Shown: positions 1 through 55,097 of the stretch, in pieces
Layout: each line of letters starts with the position of its first letter
How positions within the stretch are numbered: position 1 is the stretch's first letter
Assembly (NCBI RefSeq): GCF_000379625.1
Contig: NZ_KB903218.1
Span: forward strand, 434,001-498,000
From: Actinomycetospora chiangmaiensis DSM 45062
GTDB lineage: Bacteria; Actinomycetota; Actinomycetes; Mycobacteriales; Pseudonocardiaceae
DNA: 64,000 bases
Direction of reading: 5' to 3'
The notes under the pieces: generated by a model
The model's input: only the letters and a program-made list of their open reading frames with translations
What the model was told of the DNA's origin: nothing
The model's database searches: none
Position numbers and translations under genes: made by a program

Positions 1-1180
1 GGTCGACCGCGCCGATCGCCGGGCCGCCCAGGCCGCGCAGGCCCGCGCCGAAGCGACCCTGCTCGCGTCGTTCGCCCGGGTCGTGATCTCCCGGTCGGAC
101 CCGCTGCCGCGCCTGCTCGACCGGGTGCGCGAGGCGTTCGGGTTCAGCTCGGTCGCGGTCCTGGAGCGGGGCCCGAAGTCGTCGTGGCGGGTCATCGCGC
201 GGGTGCCCGAGGGGGTGTCCGCGGCCGACGCGGACCGAGCGGCCGACGGCGGGGACCCGGCCGACGGCGGGGACCCGGCCGACGCCGACGCCGACGTCGA
301 GATCGACGAGGGGTCCCACCTCGTCGGGTGCGGGCGCACCCTGACGGCCGCCGAGAACCGGCTGTTCGCCGCGGTCGCGGGTCCCGCCCTGCTGGCGCTG
401 CGGAACCGCCGGATCAGCGCCGAGGCGGTCGACGCGGCCCGGCGCGCGGAGGCGAGCGGCCTGCGCACGGCGCTGCTCTCCGCCGTCGGCCACGACCTGC
501 GGACGCCGCTGTCGGCGATCAAGGCGGCCGTGTCGAGCCTGCGGGACCCCGAGCTGGCGCTCGGGCCCGAGGACTCCGAGGAGCTGCTCGCCACCGTGGA
601 GGAGTCCGGTGACCGCCTGGTCGCCCTCGTCGACAACCTGCTGGACTCCTCGCGCCTGGCCACCGGAGCGGTCACCCCGTACCGCATCACCGTGGGGGTG
701 GCCGAGATCGTCGACGCCGCCGTGGCCGCCCTGCCCACCGCCGAGATCCGCGGCCGGGTCGAGATCACGCCGTCCCCGCCCGGCGAGTCCGACGAGGTGG
801 TGACCGACCCGGGCCTGGCGGAACGCATCATCGCGAACCTGGTGGACAACGCCATGCGGCACGGGGGCGACGGCCCCGTGTCGCTGCGGACCAGCGCGCA
901 CGCCGACCGGGTCGAGCTGCGGGTCGTCGACCGGGGGCCCGGCGTGGCCCGGGACGCGGAGCTGTTCACCGCGTTCCAGCACCTCGGTGACCACGACTCC
1001 AACGGCACCTCCGGCGGCCTGGGTCTCGGGCTGCACGTGGCCCGCGGTTTCGCCCGCGCGATGGGCGGCACCCTCGAGCCCGAGGAGACCCCCGGGGGCG
1101 GGCTGACCATGGTGCTGTCGCTGCCGCGTGCCGGCGCCCCGCTGCCGAGTCGGCCCGTCGTCGCGGGGGCGGCGTCGTGA
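1..1180 (+). CDS. kdpD: Osmosensitive K+ channel sensor kinase KdpD, C-terminal part
   Basis: The reading frame is open from the left edge, so the 5' end lies outside the window; about 392 codons remain. The visible part starts in the charged helix that follows the KdpD transmembrane bundle, continues through a GAF-like region, then a HisKA box (SAVGHDLRTPLSAIKA, phospho-acceptor His) and an ATPase domain with N box (NLVDNAMRHGG), G1 (DRGPGVA) and G2 (GLGLGLHVARG). In known systems KdpD senses K+ limitation or turgor and phosphorylates KdpE to induce the KdpFABC K+ pump. It overlaps kdpE by GTGA. A short Gly-Asp-Pro repeat sits in the GAF-like part. The N-terminal USP/KdpD domains cannot be checked here. 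Confidence 0.9.
   Translation, partial: VDRADRRAAQAAQARAEATLLASFARVVISRSDPLPRLLDRVREAFGFSSVAVLERGPKSSWRVIARVPEGVSAADADRAADGGDPADGGDPADADADVEIDEGSHLVGCGRTLTAAENRLFAAVAGPALLALRNRRISAEAVDAARRAEASGLRTALLSAVGHDLRTPLSAIKAAVSSLRDPELALGPEDSEELLATVEESGDRLVALVDNLLDSSRLATGAVTPYRITVGVAEIVDAAVAALPTAEIRGRVEITPSPPGESDEVVTDPGLAERIIANLVDNAMRHGGDGPVSLRTSAHADRVELRVVDRGPGVARDAELFTAFQHLGDHDSNGTSGGLGLGLHVARGFARAMGGTLEPEETPGGGLTMVLSLPRAGAPLPSRPVVAGAAS
242..277 (+). repeat. Two exact 18-bp tandem units inside kdpD
   Basis: The unit GCCGACGGCGGGGACCCG is present twice back to back and then decays into GCCGAC triplets. It is in frame and encodes repeated Ala-Asp-Gly-Gly-Asp-Pro in a linker of the GAF-like region, so copy-number change would only lengthen a flexible loop. 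Confidence 0.8.
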
Positions 1181-1866
1181 GCCGGGTCCTCGTCGTCGAC
1201 GACGACCCCCACCTGCTGCGGACGCTGCGGATCAACCTCACCGCCCACGGGCACACCGTGGTCCCGGTGGCCACCGGGGCGGGCGCCCTGCGCGCGGCCG
1301 CCGACCGGCCCGCGCCCGACGTCGTCGTGCTCGACCTCGGCCTGCCCGACATCCCGGGCCTCGAGGTGCTCGAGGGGATCCGGGGCTGGAGCGCGATGCC
1401 GGTGATCGTCCTGTCGGCGCGCACCGACGCGGGCGACAAGGTGGCCGCGCTCGACGGCGGCGCCGACGACTACGTGACCAAGCCGTTCGGGATGCCGGAG
1501 CTGCTCGCCCGCATCCGCGCTGCGGTGCGCCGGGCGGCGACGGTGCCGGGGGAGGGGGAGCCGCGCGTCGCCACCCCCGACTTCGAGGTCGACCTCGTCG
1601 CGAAGAAGGTCGTGCGCGGCGGGGTCGAGGTGCACCTGTCGCCCACCGAGTGGGGCGTGCTGGAGCACCTCGTGCGGCACCCGGGGATGCTCGTCACCCA
1701 GCAGCAGCTGCTGCAGGAGGTGTGGGGCCCGCAGTACGGCACGGAGGGGCACTACCTGCGCGTCTACCTCGGGCACCTGCGCCGCAAGCTGGAGCCCGAC
1801 CCGTCCCGGCCGCGGTACCTCATCACCGAGCCCGGCCGGGGGTACCGGTTCGAGCCCGCCGGCTGA
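1177..1866 (+). CDS. kdpE: KdpE response regulator (OmpR family)
   Basis: The product is 229 aa. Receiver domain at about residues 3-117, with the acidic pocket VVDDD near the N terminus, phospho-acceptor Asp53 in VVLDLGLPD and the conserved Lys in YVTKPF. A winged-helix OmpR-type DNA-binding domain follows (about 130-227, ending GRGYRFEP). The GTG start overlaps the kdpD stop (GTGA), so the pair is translationally coupled. It is expected to activate kdpFABC, which is not in the window and may lie upstream of kdpD. Confidence 0.93.
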   Translation: MSRVLVVDDDPHLLRTLRINLTAHGHTVVPVATGAGALRAAADRPAPDVVVLDLGLPDIPGLEVLEGIRGWSAMPVIVLSARTDAGDKVAALDGGADDYVTKPFGMPELLARIRAAVRRAATVPGEGEPRVATPDFEVDLVAKKVVRGGVEVHLSPTEWGVLEHLVRHPGMLVTQQQLLQEVWGPQYGTEGHYLRVYLGHLRRKLEPDPSRPRYLITEPGRGYRFEPAG

Positions 1867-1934
1867 ACCGTTCCCGGCCCCTGCCCGCCCGGCCGCGGAT
1901 CGGGTTCGATGGACGGGGACGGAAGGTGGCGACG

Positions 1935-3443
1935 ATGCCCGTGACGGCGGCCGGTGAGGTCGAGCGGACGTTCGAGGTGGCCGGGGCCGAGGTCCTCGAC
2001 GGCGCCGACGTGGCCCGGGTGCTGGGCCACCACGTCCCGGCCGAGCCGGTCGAACGGCTGCAGGAGGCCGTCTACTTCGACACCGCCGACCTGGCCCTGC
2101 ACGGCGACCGCGTCACCCTCCGGCGACGCACCGGCGGTCCCGACGACGGGTGGCACGTCAAGCTGCCCGCGGCCGGCGACCGTCGCGAGGAGCTGCACGC
2201 CCCGCTCACCCCCGCCGGATCCGCCCCGCCGCCCGACGTCACGGCCCTGGTCCGGGCCGCCGCGCGGGGCCGGCCGCTCGGGCCGGTGGCCGAGCTGATG
2301 ACCCGCCGTCGGGCGTGGGAGGCGACGGACGCGGCGGGGCAGCGGGTGGCGGAGCTGGTGGTCGACCAGGTCACGGCCCGCACCGGGGCGGGGGGCGAGG
2401 CGATGCAGGCCTGGCAGGAGATCGAGGTCGAGGTCGGGCCGGCCGCTCCGGAGGGCTACCTCGACGTCGTGGAGGAGCGGCTCGCGGCACGGGGGATCCG
2501 GCGGTCGCCGAGCGCCTCGAAGGTCGGCCGCGTCCTCGGCGAGCGGCCCGCCCCGCGGCTCCCGGACGAGGACACGGCCGCCGGCGTGGTGCTGCGCTAC
2601 CTGGCCGAGCACGGCCGCACGCTGCGCGGCTGGGACCCGCTGGTCCGGCTCGACCGCGAGGACGCGGTGCACCAGATGCGGGTGTCGGCGCGCCGGCTGC
2701 GCAGTGCGCTGCAGGGCTTCGGGCGCGTGCTCGACCGCGAGCGCACCCGCGCCCTCACCGACGAGCTGCGCTGGCTCGCCGGCGAGCTCGCCCCGGCCCG
2801 CGACACCGAGGTGATGCTGGCACGGCTGCAGGACATGCTCGCCGCGCTGCCGCCCACGCTCGTCGTCGGGCCGGTCGCCGCCGAGGTGGCGCAGGCGTTC
2901 GCCCGTCGCGGTGCCGCAGCCCGCGGGCGGGTGCTCGCCGCGCTGGACTCCAAGCGCTACGTCGCGGTGCTGCGGGCCCTCGACGCGCTGCTCGCCGACC
3001 CGCCGCTGACCGCCCGGGCGCCGCGCGTCGCCCGGGAGGTCCTGCCGCGCGAGGTCGACCGCGCGCACCGGAAGGTGGTGGTCGCGATGGCGGCCGCCGA
3101 CGGGGTCCCGCGCGGCCCGGAGCGCGACGCGGCCCTGCACGAGACGCGCAAGAAGGCCAAGCGGCTGCGGTACGCGACGGAGGTCGCGGAGCCGGCGCTC
3201 GGCGACCCGGCCCGCCGGCTGCGGCGCCGGATGAAGGACGTCCAGGAACTGCTCGGCGTGCACCAGGACTCGGTGGTCACCCGCGCGACCCTGCTCGAGC
3301 TCGCCGGCGGCGGGCCGGGCCCGCGGGAGGTCACCCACGACTTCACCCTGGGGATGCTCCACGCCGCCGAGGTCGAGCGGGCGCACGAGGTGGAGGAGAT
3401 GTTGCCCGCCGTCTGGGCGACGGTGCCGGCTCCAGGGCAGTGA
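1935..3443 (+). CDS. CYTH and CHAD domain protein
   Basis: The product is 502 aa. The ATG at 1935 is chosen because the CYTH motif begins seven residues later and a purine-rich GGAAGG lies upstream; the frame is open further upstream but overlaps kdpE. N-terminal CYTH (triphosphate tunnel) domain about 1-205; C-terminal CHAD helical domain about 210-500 with the paired basic/His motifs VHQMRVSARRLRSAL and HETRKKAKRLRYA that bind polyphosphate in characterised CHAD proteins. The usual CYTH signature ExExK reads EVERT here, so the motif Lys is replaced by Thr; triphosphatase activity is therefore uncertain. It stands alone after kdpDE. Confidence 0.85.
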   Translation: MPVTAAGEVERTFEVAGAEVLDGADVARVLGHHVPAEPVERLQEAVYFDTADLALHGDRVTLRRRTGGPDDGWHVKLPAAGDRREELHAPLTPAGSAPPPDVTALVRAAARGRPLGPVAELMTRRRAWEATDAAGQRVAELVVDQVTARTGAGGEAMQAWQEIEVEVGPAAPEGYLDVVEERLAARGIRRSPSASKVGRVLGERPAPRLPDEDTAAGVVLRYLAEHGRTLRGWDPLVRLDREDAVHQMRVSARRLRSALQGFGRVLDRERTRALTDELRWLAGELAPARDTEVMLARLQDMLAALPPTLVVGPVAAEVAQAFARRGAAARGRVLAALDSKRYVAVLRALDALLADPPLTARAPRVAREVLPREVDRAHRKVVVAMAAADGVPRGPERDAALHETRKKAKRLRYATEVAEPALGDPARRLRRRMKDVQELLGVHQDSVVTRATLLELAGGGPGPREVTHDFTLGMLHAAEVERAHEVEEMLPAVWATVPAPGQ

Positions 3444-3472
3444 CGGGGTGGTGGCCGTCCGCCGGGGTCGCG

Positions 3473-4048
3473 TCAGTCCGGGAGGGGCCCGGAGCGGCGG
3501 GGGATCGCAGCGGTCCGGTCCGCCGCCGGCCACCGGACGCCCGTCACGTGATCGGCCGCGGGGGAGAGCAGGAAGCGCACGGCGTGGGCCGTGTCGTCGG
3601 GCCCCTGACCGTCGCTGACCGAGTTCACCCGCACCCCGTCGTCCGCGAGCCATTCCGCGAGGCCCGCCGTCCGGTCGGCGTCGCCCCCCACGATCACGAC
3701 GGCGGCGTGGGGCGACGCCCGCAGCGGCGCCCGGGCGGCGCGCAGGACGGGGACGGTGGCGGCCTCGGTGCGCGCGACGGTGACGATCCCGTCGAGGAGC
3801 CCGCGGTCGGCCACCACCCCGGTCACGACGTCGCGGACCGTCTCCTCGCACGCGTCGACCGACAGCCGCCGGAACGACACGCGGCCGAGGGGGCCGCCGT
3901 GGCGGCGGGCCGACTCCTGGGCGGCGTCCCCGTCCTCGTCGAGGATCTCCACGGTCGCGCCGTCGGTGACGAGGGCGTCCACGATCGCGGACCCGGTCCC
4001 GCCGGCCCCCCCGACGACGAGCAGCACCCGCCCGTCCAAGTCCCCCAT
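3473..4048 (-). CDS. Short-chain dehydrogenase-like protein without the catalytic Tyr/Lys
   Basis: The product is 191 aa, shorter than the usual 240-260 aa SDR. The N terminus has a Rossmann glycine motif (VVGGAGGTGSAIVDAL) and an acidic residue at the end of beta-2 (EILDEDGD). The later strand and helix pattern (LAEWLADDGVRVNSVSDG) is SDR-like, but the YxxxK active-site segment is missing: the expected region reads GGDADRTAGLAEW. It may be a pseudoenzyme or a dinucleotide-binding regulator. The ATG at 4048 is used because the longer frame upstream has no SDR-like sequence. The substrate cannot be predicted. Confidence 0.6.
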   Translation of the reverse strand: MGDLDGRVLLVVGGAGGTGSAIVDALVTDGATVEILDEDGDAAQESARRHGGPLGRVSFRRLSVDACEETVRDVVTGVVADRGLLDGIVTVARTEAATVPVLRAARAPLRASPHAAVVIVGGDADRTAGLAEWLADDGVRVNSVSDGQGPDDTAHAVRFLLSPAADHVTGVRWPAADRTAAIPRRSGPLPD

Positions 4049-4172
4049 GGCCCTGCTCCGTTCCCGTGCTCGGATGCACGGTCGCGATGCGTGAGCGGCT
4101 GAACCTAGGCCGCAGGACACCGGGCCGCTATGCCCCGAGCGCACGTGCTGTCCCCTCGACGAACACTTTGCC

Positions 4173-4898
4173 TCATGCTTGCGTGAGGGGCCACCCGGAC
4201 ACCCTCTTGCTGCGGGCCGGGGCGAAAGTCCTGGTCTTCGACGTCGTCAGGCCCAGGCGGACCAGGCTCTCGGCCGTCGTCACGGCCGCCGCCACCCCGT
4301 CGACCACGGGGACCCCGGTGCGCTCGCGCACCTGCTCGTCGAGTCCGGCCAGGCCCCCGCAGCCGAGCACGATCACCTCGGCGCCGTCGTCACGCACCGC
4401 GACGGCGGCCTGCTCCGCCACGGCCGCCGCCGCGGCGTCCGGATCCCGTTCGAGGTCGAGGACCCCCATCCCCGAGGCGCGCACCGAGGCGCACCGCCGG
4501 TCGAGCCCGGCGAGCAGGAGTCGGTCCTCGATGAGGGGGACGGTCCGGTCGAGGGAGGTGACCACCGAGTACCGGCGGCCGAGGAAGGTCGCCGTGGTGG
4601 CCGCGGCCTCGGTGATGTCGACGACGGGGACGGTCAGGGCCTCCTGCAGGGCCTCCCGGCCGTGCTCGCCGAAGCCGGCCTGGACCACGGCGTCGTAGGG
4701 GCCGCGGTGTCGCAGGACGGCGTCGAGGACGCCGACCGCCGCGAGGTGACTCTCGACGTTGCCCTCGACGGACTCGGCCCCGAACCACGGCGTCACCCCG
4801 ACGATCTCGGTGCCGGGAGCGGCCACCGCCGCGGCCGCCCGGGCGATGCCGTCGGTGACGGCGGCCGTGGTGTTCACGTTGACGACGAGGATGCGCAC
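4173..4898 (-). CDS. Asp/Glu/hydantoin racemase superfamily protein
   Basis: The product is 241 aa from the GTG at 4898, chosen because family members begin with a ILVVNVNTT-type strand; a GTG at 4925 would add nine residues. The fold signatures are present: a C-terminal cysteine loop (VLGCGGLAG) and VPVVDGVAAA. The first catalytic cysteine, normally in an ACFGD-type loop, is Gly here (VVQAGFGEHG). Two-base racemases need both cysteines; arylmalonate decarboxylase in the same superfamily also has Gly at the first site. It is divergent from an NCS1 permease, as in hydantoin salvage loci, but no hydantoinase is nearby. The family is confident, the reaction is not. Confidence 0.75.
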   Translation of the reverse strand: MRILVVNVNTTAAVTDGIARAAAAVAAPGTEIVGVTPWFGAESVEGNVESHLAAVGVLDAVLRHRGPYDAVVQAGFGEHGREALQEALTVPVVDITEAAATTATFLGRRYSVVTSLDRTVPLIEDRLLLAGLDRRCASVRASGMGVLDLERDPDAAAAAVAEQAAVAVRDDGAEVIVLGCGGLAGLDEQVRERTGVPVVDGVAAAVTTAESLVRLGLTTSKTRTFAPARSKRVSGWPLTQA

Positions 4899-4989
4899 GC
4901 CGATCACTGTGCTCGTTGCGGGCACGTTCCCCGTGTGAGGATCGTGTGACGCTTTCGGAGATCCCCGTGGTCGGCCGGGACGGTCGACC

Positions 4990-4995
4990 TAGCGT
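4990..4995 (+). promoter_or_regulatory. TAGCGT -10-like box of the NCS1 gene
   Basis: TAGCGT, a common actinobacterial sigma-A -10 variant, ends 30 bp before the ATG of the permease gene. No convincing -35 was seen. The same hexamer precedes selO, the LLM monooxygenase and the FMN reductase. Confidence 0.4.
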
Positions 4996-5025
4996 CCCCC
5001 GGCAGAGGCCCCGGGGAGGACCGCG

Positions 5026-6510
5026 ATGACCGAGCAGATGCGAGCAGGTCACGACGACCTGGTGGAAGCGGCCGGTTCCCCGGTCGCCGACGGGTACGAC
5101 CCGCGACTGACCAACGAGGACCTGGCCCCGCTGCGGGAGCAGACCTGGTCGTCGTACAACTTCTTCGCGTTCTGGATGAGCGACGTCCACTCCGTCGGCG
5201 GCTACCTGACGGCGGGCTCCCTCTTCGCCCTGGGCCTCGCCGCGTGGCAGGTGCTCGTGGCCCTGCTCGTCGGGATCGGGATCGTCTACCTGCTCTGCAA
5301 CCTCGTCGCGCGGCCCTCGCAGGCCACCGGGACGCCGTACCCGGTGGTCTGCCGGTCGGCCTTCGGCGTGCTCGGGGCGAACGTCCCGGCCGTCATCCGC
5401 GGCCTCATCGCCGTGGCCTGGTACGGCATCCAGACCTACCTCGCCTCGGCGTCGCTCGTCGTCGTGGCCCTCAAGCTCTGGCCCGGGCTCGCGCCCTACG
5501 CGGACAACTCGACGGGGTTCACGGGCCTGTCGACCGTCGGGTGGGTGGCCTTCGCGGTGATGTGGGTGCTGCAGGCCGTCGTGTTCTGGAAGGGCATGGA
5601 GGCGATCCGGCGCTTCATCGACTTCTGCGGGCCCGCCGTCTACGTCGTGATGTTCCTGCTGGCGGGCTACCTCGTCCTGCGGGCCGGGTGGTCGTCGATC
5701 GACCTCAACCTCTCGGCGAACGTGGTCAGCGGCTGGGCGGTGCTGCCGCTGATGGCGACCGCGGTGGCCCTCGTCGTCTCCTACTTCTCCGGACCGATGC
5801 TCAACTACGGCGACTTCTCGCGGTACGGGAAGAGCTTCGCGGCCGTGAAGCGGGGCAACTTCCTCGGGCTGCCGGTCAACTTCCTCGTGTTCGCCCTGCT
5901 CGTGGTGGTGACGGCGGCCGCGACCCGGCCGGTGTTCGGCGAGCTGATCGACGACCCGGTGCAGACGGTGGCGCGCCTGGACTCGACGACCGCCGTGGTG
6001 CTGGGCGCGCTCACCTTCATGATCGCGACGATCGGCATCAACATCGTCGCGAACTTCGTCTCGCCCGCGTTCGACTTCTCCAACGTCGCGCCGCAGCGCA
6101 TCAGCTGGCGCACCGGCGGCATGATCGCGGCCGTCGGGTCGGTGCTGCTCACGCCCTGGAACCTGTACTCGAGTCCCGACGTCATCCACTACACGCTCGA
6201 CACGCTCGGGGCCGTCATCGGTCCGCTCTACGGGGTGCTCATCGCCGACTACTTCCTGGTGAAGCGGCAGCGCATCGACGTCGACGCGATGTACACGCTC
6301 GACCCCGCGGGTCGCTACCACTTCCGCGGCGGCTACAACCCGGTGGCGATCGGGGCCACGGCCCTCGGCGCGGTGGGCGCGCTGCTGCTGGTGCTCCTCG
6401 GGTCGTCGGACGTCGCCGCGTTCTCCTGGTTCGTGGGCGCCGGCGTCGCGTTCGCCGCCCACCTCCTGGGCAGCCGCCGGGCCACGGAGGTCAGCGACCC
6501 GGCTCGATGA
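5026..6510 (+). CDS. NCS1 family nucleobase/hydantoin:cation symporter
   Basis: The product is 494 aa, about 12 membrane segments, typical NCS1 length. The conserved N-terminal motif region (LTNEDLAPLREQTWSSYNFF and the following FWMSDVHSVGGY) matches the Mhp1/allantoin permease class; the loop with GTPYPVVCRSAFGVLG is also characteristic. A strong Shine-Dalgarno (GGGGAGGA) precedes the ATG. It probably imports a purine, pyrimidine, allantoin or hydantoin with Na+ or H+. Neighbours are a divergent racemase-superfamily gene and a convergent alcohol dehydrogenase, whose 3' end it overlaps by 20 bp. Confidence 0.9.
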   Translation: MTEQMRAGHDDLVEAAGSPVADGYDPRLTNEDLAPLREQTWSSYNFFAFWMSDVHSVGGYLTAGSLFALGLAAWQVLVALLVGIGIVYLLCNLVARPSQATGTPYPVVCRSAFGVLGANVPAVIRGLIAVAWYGIQTYLASASLVVVALKLWPGLAPYADNSTGFTGLSTVGWVAFAVMWVLQAVVFWKGMEAIRRFIDFCGPAVYVVMFLLAGYLVLRAGWSSIDLNLSANVVSGWAVLPLMATAVALVVSYFSGPMLNYGDFSRYGKSFAAVKRGNFLGLPVNFLVFALLVVVTAAATRPVFGELIDDPVQTVARLDSTTAVVLGALTFMIATIGINIVANFVSPAFDFSNVAPQRISWRTGGMIAAVGSVLLTPWNLYSSPDVIHYTLDTLGAVIGPLYGVLIADYFLVKRQRIDVDAMYTLDPAGRYHFRGGYNPVAIGATALGAVGALLLVLLGSSDVAAFSWFVGAGVAFAAHLLGSRRATEVSDPAR

Positions 6511-7498
6511 CGACGACCTCCCCGGGAACGGGCGGGGCGGCGAGCGCGGCCGGGGCCGCGTCGAGACCGATGCGGCGGGTGACCAGACCGGCGGGATCGA
6601 GCCGCCCCGACGTCACGAGGGCCATGAGCGCCGGGTAGTCGGCGGCGGCCATGCCGTGACTGCCCAGCACCGCGAGCTCGCGGGCGATCATCGCGGGCAC
6701 CGGGACCACCGGGTCGGCGGCGAGCAGCCCGACCTGCACGACCGTGCCCTGCCGGCGCAGGGCACGCAGGCCCGTCGTCAGGGACTCCGCGCGCCCGGCG
6801 GCCTCGATCGCGACGGTGAACCCGCCGTCGGGGACCTCCGCGGGGTCGAGCGCGGTCGCGGCCCCCAGTGCGAGTGCGCGGTCGCGCGCGGCGGGGGAGG
6901 GGTCGGCGGCGGCGACCTCCGCGCCGAGGACCCCCGCCACGAGCACCGCCGCGAGGCCCACGCCGCCCGCACCGAGCACGAGCACCCGGTCGCCGGGCCC
7001 GACCCGGGCACGGTCGACGACCGCCCGGTACGCCGTGGCCACGCGGCACCCGAGCAGGGCCGCGCCCCCGGCGTCGAGATCGTCGGGGACGGCGACGAGG
7101 TTCGCGTCCGCGTGGCGAAGGGCCACGAGCTCGGCGAACGAGCCGTCGTGGGTGAAGCCGGGCTGCTCCTGGTCGGGGCAGACCTGCGCCTGCCCGGCCG
7201 CGCACTCCGCGCAGTGCCCGCAGCCCTCGACGAACGGGGTGAGCACCCGGTCGCCCTCCCGGACCCGATGCACCCGCGAACCGACCGCGACCACCCGCCC
7301 CACCAGCTCGTGGCCCGGCACCAGCGGCAGCACCACCCCGTCGTCGTGGCCCCGCCACGCGAAGCGGTCGCTCGCGCAGAGGCCCGTCGCCTCCACCGCG
7401 ACGACGACGCCGTCGGGGTCGGGCGCCGGGTCCGGCCGCTCGACGACGGCGGGTTCGGACCCGAACTCGGTGATCACCACGGCTCGCACGCCGGACAT
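6491..7498 (-). CDS. Zinc-dependent alcohol dehydrogenase (MDR family)
   Basis: The product is 335 aa. GroES-like catalytic domain with the zinc-site residues ATGLCASD and GHELVGRV (GHE motif), and a structural-zinc lobe with clustered cysteines (GCGHCAECAAGQAQVC). The nucleotide-binding Rossmann motif is VLGAGGVGLAAV. The ATG at 7498 directs transcription away from the cyclase gene, so the two share a 73-bp divergent promoter region. It may oxidise or reduce an intermediate of the same pathway as the cyclase and TPP enzyme; the substrate is unknown. Confidence 0.88.
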   Translation of the reverse strand: MSGVRAVVITEFGSEPAVVERPDPAPDPDGVVVAVEATGLCASDRFAWRGHDDGVVLPLVPGHELVGRVVAVGSRVHRVREGDRVLTPFVEGCGHCAECAAGQAQVCPDQEQPGFTHDGSFAELVALRHADANLVAVPDDLDAGGAALLGCRVATAYRAVVDRARVGPGDRVLVLGAGGVGLAAVLVAGVLGAEVAAADPSPAARDRALALGAATALDPAEVPDGGFTVAIEAAGRAESLTTGLRALRRQGTVVQVGLLAADPVVPVPAMIARELAVLGSHGMAAADYPALMALVTSGRLDPAGLVTRRIGLDAAPAALAAPPVPGEVVVIEPGR

Positions 7499-7571
7499 TG
7501 TCGTGGGTCGGTGGCAGCATCACGCGCGACGAGGGACCCAGCCTGATCCCATCACACCGGAGGAGCCGCCC

Positions 7572-8348
7572 GTGTCCGTCCTGTCCGCGTTCGCCGAGGC
7601 GATGCGCTCCGGCGCGGTCGAGGTCGTCGACCTCACGACGCCGCTGCAGTCCTCGACGCCGATCCTGGAGCTGCCCGCACCGTTCGCGAACACCTCGCGG
7701 TTCCGGCTCGAGGAGCTCTCGCGCTACGACGACCGCGGGCCCGCCTGGTACTGGAACGACATCCACACCGGCGAGCACACCGGCACTCACCTCGACGCGC
7801 CGAACCACTGGGTCACGGGGCGCGAGGGGCCCGACGTCTCGCAGGCGCCGATGCGCACCCTCGTCGCGCCCGTCGTCGTCATCGACCGGACCGCCGAGGT
7901 GGCCGCCGATCCGGACCACCTGCTCGAGGTGTCCGACCTCGAGGCATGGCAGGCGGAGCACGGTCCGCTGCCCGACGGCGGGTGGCTCCTCTACCGCACG
8001 GGCTGGGAGGTGCGGGGCGCCACGCAGGAGGAGTTCGTCAACGCCGACGAGGCCGGGCCGCACACCCCCGGTGTCTCCGCGGCGTGCGCCCGGTGGATCG
8101 CCGAGGAGTCGCCGCTCGGCGGGTTCGGGGTGGAGACCGTCGGCACCGACGCGGGCGCGGCCGGGGGCTTCGACCCGCCGTTCGCCTGCCACCACTTCCT
8201 CATGGGCGCCCACAAGTGGGGCCTGACGAGCCTGCGCAACCTCGCGCGGGTCCCGACGACGGGTGCGGTCCTGGTGGTCTGTCCGCTCCCGATCGTCGGC
8301 GGGTCCGGGTCGCCCGCGCGGGTGCTGGCGCTGGTGGAGCACGCGTGA
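7572..8348 (+). CDS. Cyclase family hydrolase (kynurenine formamidase/isatin hydrolase type)
   Basis: The product is 258 aa. It carries the PF04199 metal motif HTGTHLDAPNHW at about residues 69-80, with further His residues near the C terminus (FACHHFLMGAHKWG). Enzymes of this family use Mn or Zn to open cyclic amides or hydrolyse N-formyl groups. The GTG at 7572 is preceded by GGAGGAG. It is coupled to the next gene, a TPP enzyme, by a GTGA overlap, so the two probably act in sequence on a ring-opened acid. The exact substrate cannot be read from sequence. Confidence 0.85.
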   Translation: MSVLSAFAEAMRSGAVEVVDLTTPLQSSTPILELPAPFANTSRFRLEELSRYDDRGPAWYWNDIHTGEHTGTHLDAPNHWVTGREGPDVSQAPMRTLVAPVVVIDRTAEVAADPDHLLEVSDLEAWQAEHGPLPDGGWLLYRTGWEVRGATQEEFVNADEAGPHTPGVSAACARWIAEESPLGGFGVETVGTDAGAAGGFDPPFACHHFLMGAHKWGLTSLRNLARVPTTGAVLVVCPLPIVGGSGSPARVLALVEHA

Positions 8349-9958
8349 GGACGGTCGCCGAGCAGGTGGGGACGCTGCTCGCCGACCTCGGCGTCGGGCA
8401 CGCGTTCGGGGTGGTCGGGAGCGGCAACCTCCACGTCACCAACGCGCTGCGGGCGGCCGGGGTCGCCTACACCGCGGCGCGGCACGAGGGCGGGGCCGCG
8501 ACCATGGCCGACGCCTACGCCCGCACCTCCGGCGAGGTGGGCGTGGTCAGCCTCCACCAGGGCTGCGGGCTCACGAACGCACTGACCGGGATCACCGAGG
8601 CCGCGAAGTCGCGCACCCCGCTGCTGGTGCTCGCCGCCGACACCGCGGGCCACGACGTGCGGTCGAACTTCCGTGTCGACCAGGACGCGCTCGCCCGGGC
8701 GGTCGGGGCCGTGCCGGAGCGGGTCCACACCGCGGCCTCGGCGGCGGCCGACGTCGTGCGCGCGTACGGCATCTGCCGGGACCAGCGGCGGACGGTGGTG
8801 CTCGATCTCCCGCTCGACGTCCAGGCGGCCGCCGCGGTCGACGTGCCGGTGCCGTCCCGGACGACCTGGGGCCCGCCCGCGCCGGACGCGGACTCGGTGG
8901 TCGACCTCGCCGGCCTGCTCGACACGGCCGAGCGGCCGGTGTTCGTGGCGGGGCGCGGGGCCCGCGGCGCGCGCGCCGAACTGGAGGCGCTGGCCGATCG
9001 CTGCGGGGCGCTGCTCGCCACGTCGGCGGTGGCGCACGGCCTGTTCACCGGCTCGCCCTGGTCGGTCGGCATCTCGGGCGGCTTCGCCACGCCGCTGGCC
9101 GCCGAGCTCATCGCCGACGCCGACGTGATCGTGGCCTGGGGAGCGTCGCTCACCGCGTGGACCACGCGGCACGGCGAGCTGACGGCCGGGGCCACGCTCG
9201 TCCAGGTCGACGACACGCCGGCGGCGCTCGGGGCGCAGCGGCCGGTCACGCTCGGGGTGCTGGGCGACGTGGCGGCGACCGCGCGGGAGACGCTGACGGT
9301 CGTCGACGAGCAGGAGGGCTACCGCACGGCGGCCGTCGCGGAGCGGCTGCGGACCGACGCCCGCCACGTCGCGCCCGCCGAGGTGGTGGCGGAGCGGATC
9401 GACCCCCGCGTCCTGTCCGCCGCGCTCGACGAGGTGCTGCCGACCGAGCGGACGGTCGCCGTCGACTCCGGCAACTTCATGGGCTACCCGGCGGGCTACC
9501 TCCGCGTGCCCGACGAGGCCGGGTTCTGCTTCACCCAGGGCTTCCAGTCGATCGGCCTCGGGCTCTCGACGGCGATCGGGGCCGCGCTCGCCCGGCCCGA
9601 CCGGGTGCCGGTCGCCGCGTGCGGGGACGGCGGGTTCCTCATGGGCATCTCGGAGCTGGAGACGGCGGTCCGGCTCGGGCTGGGCCTCGTCGTCGTGGTC
9701 TACGACGACGCCGGGTACGGCGCCGAGTTCCACCACTTCACCGACGCCGACCACGGCGCCGTCCGCTTCCCCGACGCCGACCTCGCCGCGATCGCGCGGG
9801 GCCACGGCTGCGAGGCCACGGTGGTGCGGTCCACCCACGACCTCGCCGTGCTGCGGGACTGGCTGGCCGGGCCGCGGGACCGACCGGTGCTGCTCGACGC
9901 GAAGGTGACCTCGGACGCACCGGCCTGGTGGTTGGCCGAGGCCTTCAGGGCGCACTGA
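8345..9958 (+). CDS. Thiamine-pyrophosphate-dependent enzyme (acetolactate synthase/decarboxylase-like)
   Basis: The product is 537 aa with the three-domain architecture of the POX/ALS/benzoylformate decarboxylase superfamily. The cofactor-activating Glu lies in ARHEGGAATMADAYAR near residue 45; the TPP/Mg signature GDGGFLMGISELETA begins near residue 420 and ends with VYDDAGYG. The GTG start overlaps the stop of the cyclase gene. It is not close enough to ilvB to call acetolactate synthase; a decarboxylase or C-C lyase of a 2-keto acid in the cyclase pathway is more likely. It is transcribed with the cyclase from the promoter shared with the alcohol dehydrogenase. Confidence 0.8.
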   Translation: MRTVAEQVGTLLADLGVGHAFGVVGSGNLHVTNALRAAGVAYTAARHEGGAATMADAYARTSGEVGVVSLHQGCGLTNALTGITEAAKSRTPLLVLAADTAGHDVRSNFRVDQDALARAVGAVPERVHTAASAAADVVRAYGICRDQRRTVVLDLPLDVQAAAAVDVPVPSRTTWGPPAPDADSVVDLAGLLDTAERPVFVAGRGARGARAELEALADRCGALLATSAVAHGLFTGSPWSVGISGGFATPLAAELIADADVIVAWGASLTAWTTRHGELTAGATLVQVDDTPAALGAQRPVTLGVLGDVAATARETLTVVDEQEGYRTAAVAERLRTDARHVAPAEVVAERIDPRVLSAALDEVLPTERTVAVDSGNFMGYPAGYLRVPDEAGFCFTQGFQSIGLGLSTAIGAALARPDRVPVAACGDGGFLMGISELETAVRLGLGLVVVVYDDAGYGAEFHHFTDADHGAVRFPDADLAAIARGHGCEATVVRSTHDLAVLRDWLAGPRDRPVLLDAKVTSDAPAWWLAEAFRAH

Positions 9959-10046
9959 GCGGGCCGGGTGACGGTGCGGTGGCTGGGTCGGCAGTGCCCG
10001 TGTATCAAGTCCTCATGCCGATCCTGATCGAGACCACGGTCATCCG

Positions 10047-10931
10047 GTGAGTGCCCCCACCCGCGCGGGTGTGGAGATGACGATTCACGGCCGGCGGCTC
10101 CGGCGGGACCGCGCCCTGATCATGGCCATCGTCAACCGCACCCCGAACTCGTTCTACGACCACGGGTCGACCTGGCAGCCCGCCGCCGCCGAGGCCGCCG
10201 TCGAGCGGGCCGTCGCACAGGGAGCGGACGTCGTCGACCTCGGCGGCGTGCCGGCCAGCCCCGGTCCCGAGGTCACCGTCGCCGACGAGATCGACCGGGT
10301 GCGCCCGACACTGGTGTGGGCGCGCGAGCGGTTCCCCGAGCTGACGATCTCGATCGACACCTACCGCGCCGAGGCCGCGGCCGCGCTGCTGGAGGCCGGG
10401 GCCGACCTGGTCAACGACAGCTGGGCGGGGTGGGACGAGGAGATCCTGCCGGTGACGGCCCGCCACGGCGCCGGCTACGTCGCCGCGCACACCGGCGGGC
10501 TGACGCCGCGGACCGACCCGGTGAAGCCGGTCTACGACGACGTCATGGGCGACGTCGTCGACTTCACGGTGGCGCTCGCCGAGCGGGCGGTCGAGGCGGG
10601 GGTGCCCGCCGAGGGCATCCTGCTCGACCCCACGATCGACTTCGGCAAGAACACCCTGCAGAGCCTCGAGGTGCTGCGCACGCTGCCGCGCCTGATCGAC
10701 ACCGGGTGGCCCGTGCTGCTCGCGATGTCGAACAAGGGCGTGGTGGGGGAGACCCTCGACGTCCCGCTCGACGGCCGCCTCACCGGGACGCTGGCCGCCA
10801 CCGCGCTGTGCGCCCAGATGGGCGTGACGATGGTCCGCGCGCACCAGGTCGAGGAGACCCGGCAGACCCTGGAGATGGTCGCGAGCGTGCTGGGCCACCG
10901 CCCGCCCTCGCGCGCCGAGAGGTGGATGTAG
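10047..10931 (+). CDS. folP2: Dihydropteroate synthase paralogue, FolP2 type
   Basis: The product is 294 aa (GTG start; an ATG at 10077 is an alternative). TIM-barrel DHPS motifs are present: ALIMAIVNRTPNSFYD, ISIDTYRAEAA, DLVNDSWAG, DPTIDFGKNT, MSNKGVVGETL. Motif wording (AIVNRTP, FYD, NKxVVGETL, LEMVASV.G.RPP) fits mycobacterial FolP2 rather than the canonical FolP1. The normally invariant Asp of TPDSF is Asn. FolP2 of M. tuberculosis is reported not to have DHPS activity, so a non-folate pterin-related role is possible. The next gene, a RibD/DHFR-like reductase, overlaps the stop by one base. Confidence 0.85.
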   Translation: MSAPTRAGVEMTIHGRRLRRDRALIMAIVNRTPNSFYDHGSTWQPAAAEAAVERAVAQGADVVDLGGVPASPGPEVTVADEIDRVRPTLVWARERFPELTISIDTYRAEAAAALLEAGADLVNDSWAGWDEEILPVTARHGAGYVAAHTGGLTPRTDPVKPVYDDVMGDVVDFTVALAERAVEAGVPAEGILLDPTIDFGKNTLQSLEVLRTLPRLIDTGWPVLLAMSNKGVVGETLDVPLDGRLTGTLAATALCAQMGVTMVRAHQVEETRQTLEMVASVLGHRPPSRAERWM

Positions 10932-11674
10932 TGCAGCAGGTGTGGCCGCAGCCGGCGGGGGAACTGAGCGCCGAGCAGCTGGAGGAGCTGTACACGTACC
11001 CGGTGCGCGACGCGGGCTGGGTGGCGGTGAACTTCGTCAGCTCCCTCGACGGCGGCATCGAGATCGACGGGACGAGCCGCGGACTCTCCTCCGACGCCGA
11101 CCGCACGGTGTTCGGGCTGGGCCACGACCTCGCCGACGTCGTGCTGCTCGCCTCCGGCACCGCGGTCGCCGAGGAGTACCCGGGCCTGCGGCCGGAGGGC
11201 GAGTCGGCCGAGCGTCGTCGTCGCCACGGGCTCGCCGAGGTGCCGCCGCTCGCCGTCGTGACCTCCGGGTCGCTGCCCGCGGACGCGCCGAGCATCGTCG
11301 ACGTGCTCGTGCCGACCATCGTGATCACGTGCGCGTCGGCACCGGACGAGAAGCAGCAGGCCTGGAAGGACGCGGGCGCCGAGGTGCTCGTCGCCGGGGA
11401 CGAGGACGTGGACCTGGTCGACGCGGTGCGCCAGCTCGCCGAGCGCGGGCTGCGCCGGATCGACTGCGAGGGCGGCCCCGGGCTCACCGGCAAGCTGCTC
11501 GACGCCGACCTCGTCGACGAGATGCGGATCAGCTTCGTCCCGACCGCGGTCGCGGGGCAGGCGGGCCGGGTCGCCCGGACGGACGACCCGCTGGACGAGC
11601 CGCGCGGGTTCACGGTGGGCTCGCTGCTCGTCGAGGACTCGACGATCCTCGTCCGGTATCTCCGCACCCGCTGA
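10931..11674 (+). CDS. RibD C-terminal-domain reductase (Rv2671-like, DHFR-fold)
   Basis: The product is 247 aa. It has the DHFR-like RibD_C fold: a first strand and loop VAVNFVSSLDGGIEIDG, the motif GLGHDLADVVLLASGTAVAEE, and CEGGPGLTGKLL near residue 180. Length and motifs match the stand-alone mycobacterial RibD homologue Rv2671, reported to have dihydrofolate reductase activity. The GTG start shares its first base with the upstream TAG (TAGTG), which couples it to folP2. Pairing with a pterin synthase paralogue supports a role in reducing a pterin or pyrimidine rather than in riboflavin synthesis, but this is inferred. Confidence 0.8.
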   Translation: MQQVWPQPAGELSAEQLEELYTYPVRDAGWVAVNFVSSLDGGIEIDGTSRGLSSDADRTVFGLGHDLADVVLLASGTAVAEEYPGLRPEGESAERRRRHGLAEVPPLAVVTSGSLPADAPSIVDVLVPTIVITCASAPDEKQQAWKDAGAEVLVAGDEDVDLVDAVRQLAERGLRRIDCEGGPGLTGKLLDADLVDEMRISFVPTAVAGQAGRVARTDDPLDEPRGFTVGSLLVEDSTILVRYLRTR

Positions 11675-44185: not shown

Positions 44186-44878
44186 ATGTCCTCCGCCGTC
44201 CAGCCGGACGGGGCCCGCACGCAGGCCTACCACCGCATCCGCTCCGACATCGCCGCGGGTGCGCTCGTGCCCGGCTCCTGGGTGCGGGAGGGACCGCTCG
44301 CCGACACGCTCGGGGTCAGCCGCACCCCCGTGCGGGAGGCCCTCAACGCGCTCGCCGCGGAGGGCCTGGTGGAGATCGTCCGCCACCGCGGCGCCCGGGT
44401 GAGCTCCTGGACCCGCCGCGACGTCGACGAGGTCTACACCCTCCGCGCGCTTCTCGAGGGGGAGGGCGCCCGGCTGGCCGCCGAGCGTGCCGACGCCTCG
44501 GTGGTCGCCACGCTGCGCGAGCACGACCGCGCCTTCGCCGCCGCCGCGGCCGACCTCTCCCGGCTCCGCGCCGCCGGCGAGGACGGGGCGCCGGCGTTGC
44601 GGCGTGCCGTCGAGGCCAACGGCGCGCTGCACGACGCGGTGATGCAGGCCGCCGACAGCCCCCGCCTCGCGTCGCTGCTGGCCTCGGTCTCGTCGACCCC
44701 GCTCGTCGCGCTCGCCTTCGGCCACTACGCCGACCCCGACCTCGCCCGCAGCGTCACCGGCCACCACGACCTCGTCCTCGGCATCGAGCACCGCGACGCT
44801 GCCCTCGCCGAGTCCGCGATGCGCTCCCACATCCTCGGCGCCCGCCACGCGGCCGCCCGCAGCGCCACCGACGCCTGA
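44186..44878 (+). CDS. GntR family regulator with FCD domain
   Basis: The product is 230 aa. Winged HTH about 10-75 (AYHRIRSDIAAGALVPG, LADTLGVSRTPVREALNALA, EGLVEIVRHRGARVS) and an all-helical FCD ligand domain with the metal-site residues in LRALLEGEGARLAAER, ANGALHDAVMQAA and HHDLVLGIEHRD. FadR/VanR-type regulators repress catabolic operons and release DNA on binding an acid ligand. It is divergent from the araC gene, and the shared promoter carries four copies of a candidate operator. Confidence 0.9.
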   Translation: MSSAVQPDGARTQAYHRIRSDIAAGALVPGSWVREGPLADTLGVSRTPVREALNALAAEGLVEIVRHRGARVSSWTRRDVDEVYTLRALLEGEGARLAAERADASVVATLREHDRAFAAAAADLSRLRAAGEDGAPALRRAVEANGALHDAVMQAADSPRLASLLASVSSTPLVALAFGHYADPDLARSVTGHHDLVLGIEHRDAALAESAMRSHILGARHAAARSATDA

Positions 44879-44930
44879 TCCTTCCCGACGCCGGGTCGTC
44901 CCCGGCTCTGCTTTGTCCCGGAAGGTGCGC

Positions 44931-45190
44931 GCGCGTGGCGCACACAGTTCGGGGCTGGGCGGGTCCGGCTGCTGCGGGGTCCGCGCGTGACGCGCGCAGT
45001 CCGGGCGTGGGCCGCTTCGGTTCCGTGGGGTCCTGCGCGTGGCGCACGCATTCCGGGGGTGGGCCGGTTCTGTGCGGTGGGGGCCTGCGCGTGGCGCACA
45101 CAGCCCGGCGGTCGACCGGTAGGGCTCCGCGAGGGCCTGCGCGCGGCGCACACAATCCAGAGTGGCGGCGGTGCCGTCGAGGCCTGTCAC
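44931..45190 (+). repeat. Five direct repeats of exactly 52 bp
   Basis: The core GCGCGTGGCGCACACA (with variants) starts at 44931, 44983, 45035, 45087 and 45139, each 52 bp after the last, with a decayed sixth copy near 45188. Each core contains the palindrome TGCGC-GTG-GCGCA or a close variant, and the remainder (CCGGG..GTGGGCCG..) is also similar between units, so these are tandem repeats and not repeat-spacer units. Confidence 0.85.
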
Positions 45191-45503
45191 CGTGGCGTAC
45201 TCGGTCCGGGGAGCGCCCGGGGTCAGCCCGCGCCCGTCCCCGCCGATGCCGGCGTCGGGATCCTTGCTCGCCGAGTTGGTCTCCGCCCGGGCCCGACGTG
45301 GGAGCTCCCGCGACGCCGGCCGCGCCTCGGTGTGCGTGGACCCTCGGGCCGATCCGGTCCGACAGGCCCGCCCCGTCGTGCGTTCACGCCCCTCGGTGCT
45401 GGGACATGGCGCTCCTCATGCACTGCGACGCGGCCCGGACGTGGCGTGGGGGGTCGGTTCGAGGTGCACGGGCGGACCTCGTGAGCGCGTCGCAGCACCA
45501 CGT

Positions 45504-45640
45504 GCGCGTGTCGCGCATGAGGAGCCGATCATGAGCGACCGCCGGGCCGGAGACCGTGTTGCGCCCGACGGTGTGTGCGTGGCGCGCAGGGATCGGCGCG
45601 ATCGCGTGCCTGGCGGGGCGGAATGTGTGCGTCGCGCGCA
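45504..45640 (+). repeat. Outlying cores of the 52-bp array
   Basis: GCGCGTGTCGCGCA at 45504, GTGCGTGGCGCGCA at 45575 and GTGCGTCGCGCGCA at 45627; the last two are again exactly 52 bp apart. They look like remains of the same array. Confidence 0.65.
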
Positions 45641-45660
45641 GGAGCCGTCGCAGCCACCCG

Positions 45661-45725
45661 CCGCGACGATGTGGACTTCCTCCCACTGGATGACAGCAAT
45701 GACGCGTTGCTGTCGCAGCGAGGAG
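45661..45725 (+). repeat. 65-bp dispersed element, copy A
   Basis: It shares long identical blocks (CGACGATGTGG, TTCCT, CCACTGGATG, CAGCAA, GACGC) with the reverse complement of 55033-55097. Read in one frame both copies give DDVxFLPLDxSNDA, but no start, ribosome site or common length supports a gene. Confidence 0.6.
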
Positions 45726-45839: not shown

Positions 45840-46379
45840 GTGACCGTCTCCCTGCTCGGTCTCGTCGGATCGCCGAACGCCGGGGGCCGCAGCTCCACGG
45901 CGCTCCAGGCGTTCCTCGACGCCACGGGGGCCCCGAGCACGGTCGTCGAGCTCGGCCAGGGGCCCGACCCGGAGGACCTGCAGCGGGCGGTCGAGGCGGC
46001 GGACGGCGTCGTGTTCGCGACCCCGACCTACCGCGCCCGGTCGTCCGGGCTGATCAAGGCGTTCCTCGAGAACACCCAGCGCGGCGCCGCCGGGGAACAG
46101 CGGGCGCCGCTGCGGGGCAAGGCCACCGCGATCGTCCACACGGGCAACGCCGCCGAGCACTTCCTCGCCGTCGACGACCTGCGCTCGATCCTCGCCGGGT
46201 TCTTCGCCGCCCAGGTGCTCTCACCCGGCCTGTTCCTCAGCGGCGCGCACTTCGGACCCGACGGCGAGCTGACCGCCGAGACCCTCGAGCTCGTCGCCGC
46301 CCACGGGCGGGCCTTCGGCGAGTTCACGACGGCGGTGCGCGCCGCGCCCGCCGTCACCGCCCTCGCCCCGCTGCTCTAG
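45840..46379 (+). CDS. NAD(P)H-dependent FMN reductase
   Basis: The product is 179 aa. Flavodoxin-like fold with the FMN phosphate loop GLVGSPNAGGRSSTAL and the second flavin loop FATPTYRARSSGLIKAFLE. It probably supplies FMNH2 to the LLM monooxygenase 3 kb upstream. GTG start; TAGCGT box about 50 bp upstream. First of three tightly spaced plus-strand genes. Confidence 0.85.
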   Translation: MTVSLLGLVGSPNAGGRSSTALQAFLDATGAPSTVVELGQGPDPEDLQRAVEAADGVVFATPTYRARSSGLIKAFLENTQRGAAGEQRAPLRGKATAIVHTGNAAEHFLAVDDLRSILAGFFAAQVLSPGLFLSGAHFGPDGELTAETLELVAAHGRAFGEFTTAVRAAPAVTALAPLL

Positions 46380-55032: not shown

Positions 55033-55097
55033 CCCCGGTGGCAGCGAAGCGTCGTTGCTGGCATCCAGTGGTAGGAACGCCACATCGTCGACGGCGG
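55033..55097 (-). repeat. 65-bp dispersed element, copy B
   Basis: Reverse complement of this intergenic stretch matches 45661-45725 over about 65 bp with substitutions and one or two 1-bp gaps. It lies between the second diguanylate cyclase and the NUDIX gene. Confidence 0.6.

What the first reader, a model, noticed from the sequence alone, without database searches (positions are those of the whole stretch)
44931..45640. Non-coding array with an exact 52-bp period and palindromic cores
Seen: core starts at 44931, 44983, 45035, 45087 and 45139 are each 52 bp apart, and cores at 45575 and 45627 are again 52 bp apart. Each core holds TGCGC-GTG-GCGCA or a close variant. The whole unit is repeated, so this is not a CRISPR. 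The region codes for nothing. A 52-bp period is five helical turns, placing all cores on one face of the DNA, as would suit cooperative binding of a dimeric protein. It lies inside a catabolic locus, between its regulator and its operon.
Basis: seen in the sequence. Interest (0 to 1): 0.7.

Follow-up and report, generated by a model that had tools for sequence, protein, structure and literature searches.

The report
Inverted 52-base repeat arrays between genes
The array is real, but it is one member of a family of non-coding, two-armed repeat arrays scattered between genes in one group of soil bacteria, whose repeat length differs from species to species, so it is probably not a private switch for the neighbouring genes.

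Summary
The window's genome belongs with Actinomycetospora. The same two-armed architecture recurs at 36 distinct intergenic sites (55 loci, 295 cores) in four genomes; of 48 loci with both orientations 45 have strict order, 3 are mixed, none is reversed. A two-core pattern matches 6 of 297 family genomes, all in one clade. Unit length is uniform within a genome but differs between species: 52 bp in four genomes, 50 in one, 48 in one, even at orthologous sites. Spacers carry a weak genome-specific consensus, so copies appear homogenised in trans. Sites are enriched between convergent genes; a relative has clean empty sites. The helical-face idea fails (48 and 50 bp are not whole turns) and a private operator array is unlikely. 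No RAYT and no Cas1 was found in 18 genomes. Best reading: a REP/BIME- or STAR-like dispersed repeat family maintained by an unidentified factor that recognises the palindromic core. New variant of a known kind.

The parts
44899..45657 (.). Whole element: the stretch absent at the orthologous site of G003 (10 bp there)
44930..45154 (+). + arm: five cores (17-mers) at 44930, 44982, 45034, 45086, 45138, each 52 bp apart, with spacers that are diverged tandem copies
45155..45571 (.). Centre, 417 bp, no gene called; carries a further imperfect inverted repeat (about 45409-45433 with 45485-45527, seen by eye) partly kept in G001
45572..45640 (-). - arm: two inverted cores, 45572-45588 and 45624-45640, 52 bp apart
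44186..44878 (+). Flanking gene: GntR/FCD-type regulator; stop codon 52 bp before the first core
45840..46379 (+). Flanking gene: NADPH-dependent FMN reductase, first gene called after the element

Best explanation
The array is one copy of a clade-specific family of dispersed, non-coding intergenic repeats. An element is two arms of tandem units pointing at each other around a variable centre. A unit is a ~19-bp imperfect palindrome (CCTGCGCG-N3-CGCACACA) plus a 33-bp spacer. Shown: distribution, inverted architecture, copy-number change at fixed sites, species-specific unit length and spacer consensus, enrichment between convergent genes, one array copied to a second site within a genome. Inferred: an unidentified trans-acting factor recognises the palindromic core, as duplex DNA or as a hairpin, and maintains and spreads the units; arms grow and shrink by tandem duplication of one unit; the elements stay between genes because they are harmless or useful there, perhaps as hairpins or transcription barriers in the manner of REP/BIME elements. 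They do not specifically regulate the neighbouring catabolic genes.
For: 55 loci with two or more cores, 295 cores, 36 distinct sites; 45 of 48 loci with both orientations strictly + then -, 3 mixed, 0 reversed; 7 more are one-armed. Core near invariant while spacers vary. Spacing 52 in 148 of 184; 48 in 15 of 18 in G007 and 50 in 15 of 19 in G015, after removing loci listed twice by hand. Orthologous sites carry other periods: L024, L056, L052 (48) and L061 (47, two cores only) in G007; L061 and L051 (50) in G015. Spacers of non-orthologous loci agree more within a genome (0.492) than between genomes (0.449); composition control 0.319; permutation p 0.002. Convergent pairs at 13 of 36 distinct sites against 14 of 157 background gaps, Fisher p 1.4e-4. 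Clean absences in G003: gap of at most 24 bp at 9 of 16 two-sided sites, 20 tried. In G001 the arrays of L079 and L081 lie at different sites but are 91% identical over 298 bp.
Against: No trans-acting gene was identified. Junctions are inconclusive: no consistent target-site duplication in 11 viewed, though L029 has a flanking direct repeat of about 25 bp and the BLAST ends overlap by 8-9 bp at L056 and L052. The L079/L081 copy takes in the tail of the neighbouring gene, so its ends are not the element's ends. Within an arm spacers are near copies, so plain slippage explains arm length. On distinct sites divergent pairs are not significantly depleted (6 of 36 against 42 of 157, p 0.29) and closeness to stop codons is not significant (17 codirectional sites, 72 against 104 bp, p 0.098). 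The whole element does not fold unusually well as RNA (z -1.2 and +0.25).
Confidence: 0.57

Rival explanations
1. Sites for an abundant DNA-binding protein (nucleoid organiser, insulator or transcription/replication roadblock). Selection for its preferred spacing, not a copying mechanism, keeps the period.
For: Two conserved half-sites with a variable 3-nt middle; dyad-like cores in part of the G007/G015 arrays; 12 of 21 mapped sites within 750 kb of the point opposite dnaA in G003, p 0.0013, KS p 0.012.
Against: All loci of a lineage would have to change spacing by 2-4 bp in parallel; genome-specific consensus extends into the spacer; G003 lives with almost none. Terminus clustering is also what tolerated non-essential DNA shows.
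Confidence: 0.22
2. RNA element: cores are hairpins in transcripts and act in termination or mRNA 3'-end stability.
For: The third stem pair can form on the outward strand in 98% of 295 cores (88% as G-U) and on the inward strand in 10%. Over the other five pairs, deduplicated substitutions keep pairing only outward 66 times, only inward 12, both 1, neither 65. Enrichment between convergent genes.
Against: The asymmetry could reflect unequal half-sites of a protein; whole-element folds are ordinary; no U-tract; closeness to stop codons not significant on distinct sites, for which the odds were lowered from 0.12.
Confidence: 0.1
3. Neutral tandem repeats from slippage, with no function and no factor.
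For: Near-identical spacers within an arm, variable copy number; a segmental copy of one array with a gene tail.
Against: Core nearly invariant at dispersed sites while spacers diverge; inverted arms; species-specific period over unrelated sites.
Confidence: 0.06
4. Operator array of the neighbouring GntR regulator or catabolic operon.
For: Lies between the GntR/FCD gene and the FMN reductase/ALDH/ADH genes.
Against: 36 distinct sites with varied neighbours; orthologous site empty in G003 although the flanking sequence is kept at 84-86% identity.
Confidence: 0.02
5. A degenerate CRISPR-like array.
For: Conserved core, fixed spacer length (29/31/33 nt), array form.
Against: Spacers are copies of one another within an arm; arms inverted; Cas1 (PF01867) in 0 of 18 genomes, control rings in 9 of 14.
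Confidence: 0.01

Closest known systems
REP elements and BIMEs (PMC3733652 abstract and passages; PMC2817692 passages)
   Same: Short imperfect palindromes, extragenic, mainly between convergent and unidirectional genes, often arrayed, opposed orientations, strong species differences.
   Different: No Y1 transposase (RAYT) match in 18 genomes; beside the core no GTAG tag and rarely CGTC (0 and 9 of 295 on the outward 5' side); orientations do not alternate but form two homogeneous inverted arms.
STAR elements of staphylococci (PMC3532100 passages)
   Same: Conserved short core with locus-specific spacers giving tandem units of about 50 nt, intergenic, expanding and contracting in place, function unknown.
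   Different: The STAR motif is another sequence and is described as direct repeats; here the core is palindromic, arms are inverted, and unit length is species-specific.
MIRU of mycobacteria (recalled, no call)
   Same: Dispersed intergenic tandem units of similar length in an actinobacterium.
   Different: Recalled as oriented direct repeats without palindromic core or inverted arms; not compared by sequence here.

Membership tests
REP/BIME | Dispersed extragenic palindromic unit | tested here: met
   55 multi-core loci, no gene called inside any; called gene ends overlap the element by 15-59 bp at 3 of 55; palindromic core
REP/BIME | GTAG or CGTC tag at one end of the stem (PMC3733652) | tested here: not met
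   In the 8-nt 5' flank GTAG 0, CGTC 9 outward and 2 inward, of 295 cores; GGAG 55 outward and 8 inward
REP/BIME | Cognate RAYT (Y1 transposase), for the GTAG type | tested here: not met
   PF01797 in 0 of 18 genomes, 15 of them at least 90% complete; control rings in 5 of 14
STAR elements | Core T(G/A/T)TGTTG(G/T)GGCCC(C/A) in direct repeats (PMC3532100) | tested here: not met
   Core is TGCGCGNNNCGCACACA in inverted arms
CRISPR | Unrelated spacers and cas genes | tested here: not met
   Spacers copied within arms; Cas1 0 of 18
MITE / insertion sequence | Terminal inverted repeats with target-site duplication | tested here: inconclusive
   Clean empty sites, but no consistent duplication in 11 junctions; a flanking repeat of about 25 bp at L029 only
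Intrinsic terminator | Stem-loop followed by U-tract | tested here: not met
   No run of T after the cores in the sequences printed; read by eye, no terminator scan run

The most novel reading that the evidence does not exclude
A trans-acting enzyme with a molecular ruler builds these arrays. It recognises the hairpin core and adds or duplicates units of fixed length; the ruler has drifted between species (48, 50, 52 bp), and the dispersed arrays of a genome have been rebuilt to the new length.
Probability: 0.2. Interest if true: 0.8.

Novelty: new variant of a known kind. Interest (0 to 1): 0.52.

Why it matters
How bacteria come to share one repeat unit over many dispersed sites, and what keeps it uniform, is open even for known repeats such as STAR (no function described, PMC3532100). 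Here orthologous sites in close species carry the same kind of array with unit lengths of 48, 50 or 52 bp, and a relative (G003) has almost none. That makes a genetic search for the responsible factor possible: compare carriers with G003.

Tried and rejected
CRISPR (Cas1 not found), RAYT-driven REP, known RNA family. An autonomous mobile element behind the cores: in G003 a 10.4-kb block lies between opposed cores at the Nudix locus, but by reading its proteins it holds ordinary metabolic genes and no transposase (no family search was run on it). Solo core hits in non-carrier genomes: four (L034, L035, L037, L042) are one site conserved over 3 kb at 81-93%, apparently coding when read by eye, so not remnants. 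In the looser genus search the non-carriers also exceed the control somewhat (for example G003 12 and 10 against 5 and 2), far below the carriers (70-113 hits). The one Streptomyces hit (L111) is a low-complexity GCGCGTGTGTG repeat. In 400 kb of G009, from the other half of the genus, seven stretches with a period of 45-54 were found, all in called genes; that is 400 kb of about 6 Mb. Viral contigs: 0. Per-unit RNA alignment: outward strand z -11.9 against column shuffles, inward z -0.5; this follows largely from the conserved palindrome and is weak evidence for RNA.

I lowered the best explanation from 0.60 to 0.57 and the RNA rival from 0.12 to 0.10, and raised two others slightly.

Limits: 58 loci were fetched because they hold core matches; three with a single core (L032, L033, L054) were left out of the 55. 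The set is not complete (one search shows a further G010 cluster on C13). The rpoB tree covers 15 of 18 genomes. Genes were called with my own codon-usage script, not a standard caller.

Full report
The array is there as described. TRF reports period 52 with 4.4 copies at 44931-45158. Five cores start at 44930, 44982, 45034, 45086 and 45138 as 17-mers. The self-identity at lag 52 is far above 200 shuffles (0.756 against at most 0.519).

The array is not private to this locus. In the window's own genome the core with up to 2 mismatches occurs 22 times forward and 22 reverse, against 2 and 3 for the reversed control pattern. I fetched 58 loci in these four genomes; 55 have two or more cores: 295 cores at 36 distinct sites. 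Of 48 loci with both orientations, 45 are strictly + then -, three are mixed (L021, L070, L084), none is reversed; seven show one arm only.

Anatomy of a unit: the core CC-TGCGCG-N3-CGCACACA is nearly invariant, with a variable three-base middle and a conserved asymmetry (left half TGCGCG, right half CGCACACA). The 33-bp spacers are near copies of each other within many arms but differ between arms and between loci in the 16 loci printed. This is tandem duplication inside an arm. Arms run from 1 to 9 units and unit number differs between orthologous sites.

Distribution: a pattern of two spaced cores matches 6 of 297 genomes of the family (46 genera), all in one Actinomycetospora clade. A scan of named genome contigs gives 36 Actinomycetospora stretches and one Streptomyces stretch, the latter a simple repeat. 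G014 (59% complete) holds one more array (L166) but not as an exact match of that pattern. On an rpoB tree of 15 genomes the six carriers fall in a seven-genome clade together with G003.

The most telling result is the unit length. Spacing is 52 bp in 148 of 184 cases in G000, G001, G010 and G016, but 48 bp in 15 of 18 in G007 and 50 bp in 15 of 19 in G015 (loci listed twice removed by hand). Several of these arrays sit at sites orthologous to 52-bp arrays: L024, L056 and L052 (48 bp) and L061 (two cores, 47 bp) in G007, L061 and L051 (50 bp) in G015. Spacer sequences of non-orthologous loci also resemble each other more within a genome than between genomes (0.492 against 0.449, composition control 0.319, permutation p 0.002; the last eight bases 0.658 against 0.525), for example an A three bases before the core in 95% of 22 G010 arms. 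Unit length and consensus are thus properties of the genome, not of the locus. This also removes the helical argument: at 10.5 bp per turn 48 and 50 bp are 4.6 and 4.8 turns.

Position: no gene is called inside any of the 55 elements; called gene ends overlap the element by 15-59 bp at three (L069, L089, L090). By distinct site, convergent pairs flank 13 of 36, codirectional 17, divergent 6, against 14, 101 and 42 of 157 background gaps of at least 20 bp in 352 kb. Convergent enrichment is significant (Fisher p 1.4e-4, all three classes chi-square p 1.2e-4), divergent depletion is not (p 0.29), and at the 17 codirectional sites the distance to the stop (72 bp) and to the next start (104 bp) do not differ significantly (p 0.098). 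Mapped on the complete G003 chromosome, 12 of 21 sites fall within 750 kb of the point opposite dnaA (p 0.0013, KS p 0.012); 3 of the 24 sites tried did not map. Neighbouring genes are varied, many of peripheral catabolism (10 flanking genes of the own genome scanned).

Gain, loss and copying: G003 has the same flanking sequence with little or nothing between (gap of at most 24 bp at 9 of 16 two-sided sites; 4 of 20 tried were one-sided). Core-like remnants with up to 3 mismatches stand at 5 of the 16 (9 hits, control 2), such as TGTGCGGGGCGCACACC at the L063 site. In one case (L050 against L169) the G016 array sits in the middle of a terminator-like palindrome that is intact in G003. Of 11 junctions viewed none gives a clear short target duplication, but L029 has a flanking direct repeat of about 25 bp, and BLAST ends overlap by 8-9 bp at L056 and L052. 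In G001 the arrays of L079 and L081, about 237 kb apart on one contig, are 91% identical over 298 bp including the tail of the neighbouring gene, so an array has been copied to a second site, though not with its own ends as borders.

RNA or DNA? On the strand read outward from the centre the core can form a six-pair stem. Its third pair can form in 98% of cores (88% as G-U), while on the other strand it is a C-A mismatch (10% paired). Over the other five pairs, deduplicated substitutions preserve pairing only outward 66 times, only inward 12, both 1, neither 65. This hints at a hairpin recognised on one strand, as RNA or as single-stranded DNA, but unequal half-sites of a protein would give a similar picture, and whole-element folds are ordinary.

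Known kinds: the position and palindromic unit resemble REP/BIME elements (PMC3733652 abstract and passages; PMC2817692 passages), but the tags and the RAYT transposase are missing. Locus-specific spacers between short cores resemble STAR elements (PMC3532100 passages), but the core differs and arms are inverted. RepRanger (PMC12306157) holds the searched stem 'actinomycet' once, in a table. Searches for Actinomycetospora with repeat or palindromic, for actinobacteria with repeat terms, and for Pseudonocardiaceae with repeat terms listed no paper that by its listing treats such elements (listings only, open-access library). I therefore file it as a new variant of dispersed intergenic repeats, with the responsible factor still to be found.

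Noticed in passing
window 45664-45712 (27-mer match 45679-45705); second copy 55049-55075 (-): A second dispersed repeat: 90 matches in the own genome with up to 3 mismatches (44 forward, 46 reverse; control 2 and 1), with similar hits in G003, G007 and others; many of the 12 copies viewed look like parts of a large imperfect palindrome GTGACAGCGGAGCGTCGT...ACGACGCTTCGCTGTCAC.
   Followed up: partly
window 45409-45527: Centre of the element holds an imperfect inverted repeat (GGCGCTCCTCATGC... / ...GCATGAGGAGCC, by eye); 45470-45538 also matches single places in G003 and G007.
   Followed up: no
L186 and L062: A hairpin GTGAGGGGA...TCCCCTCAC stands at the empty site in G003, and a close variant beside the array in G016, perhaps a third repeat family.
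   Followed up: no
L188 about 800-11200 (G003): A 10.4-kb block of metabolic genes lies between opposed cores at the Nudix locus.
   Followed up: partly
L154/L155 (rpoB of G003 and G016): G003 and G016 are nearly identical in rpoB (0.007 changes per column) although their sequences beside the elements are 83-94% identical, which suggests rpoB exchange or a slow rpoB.
   Followed up: no
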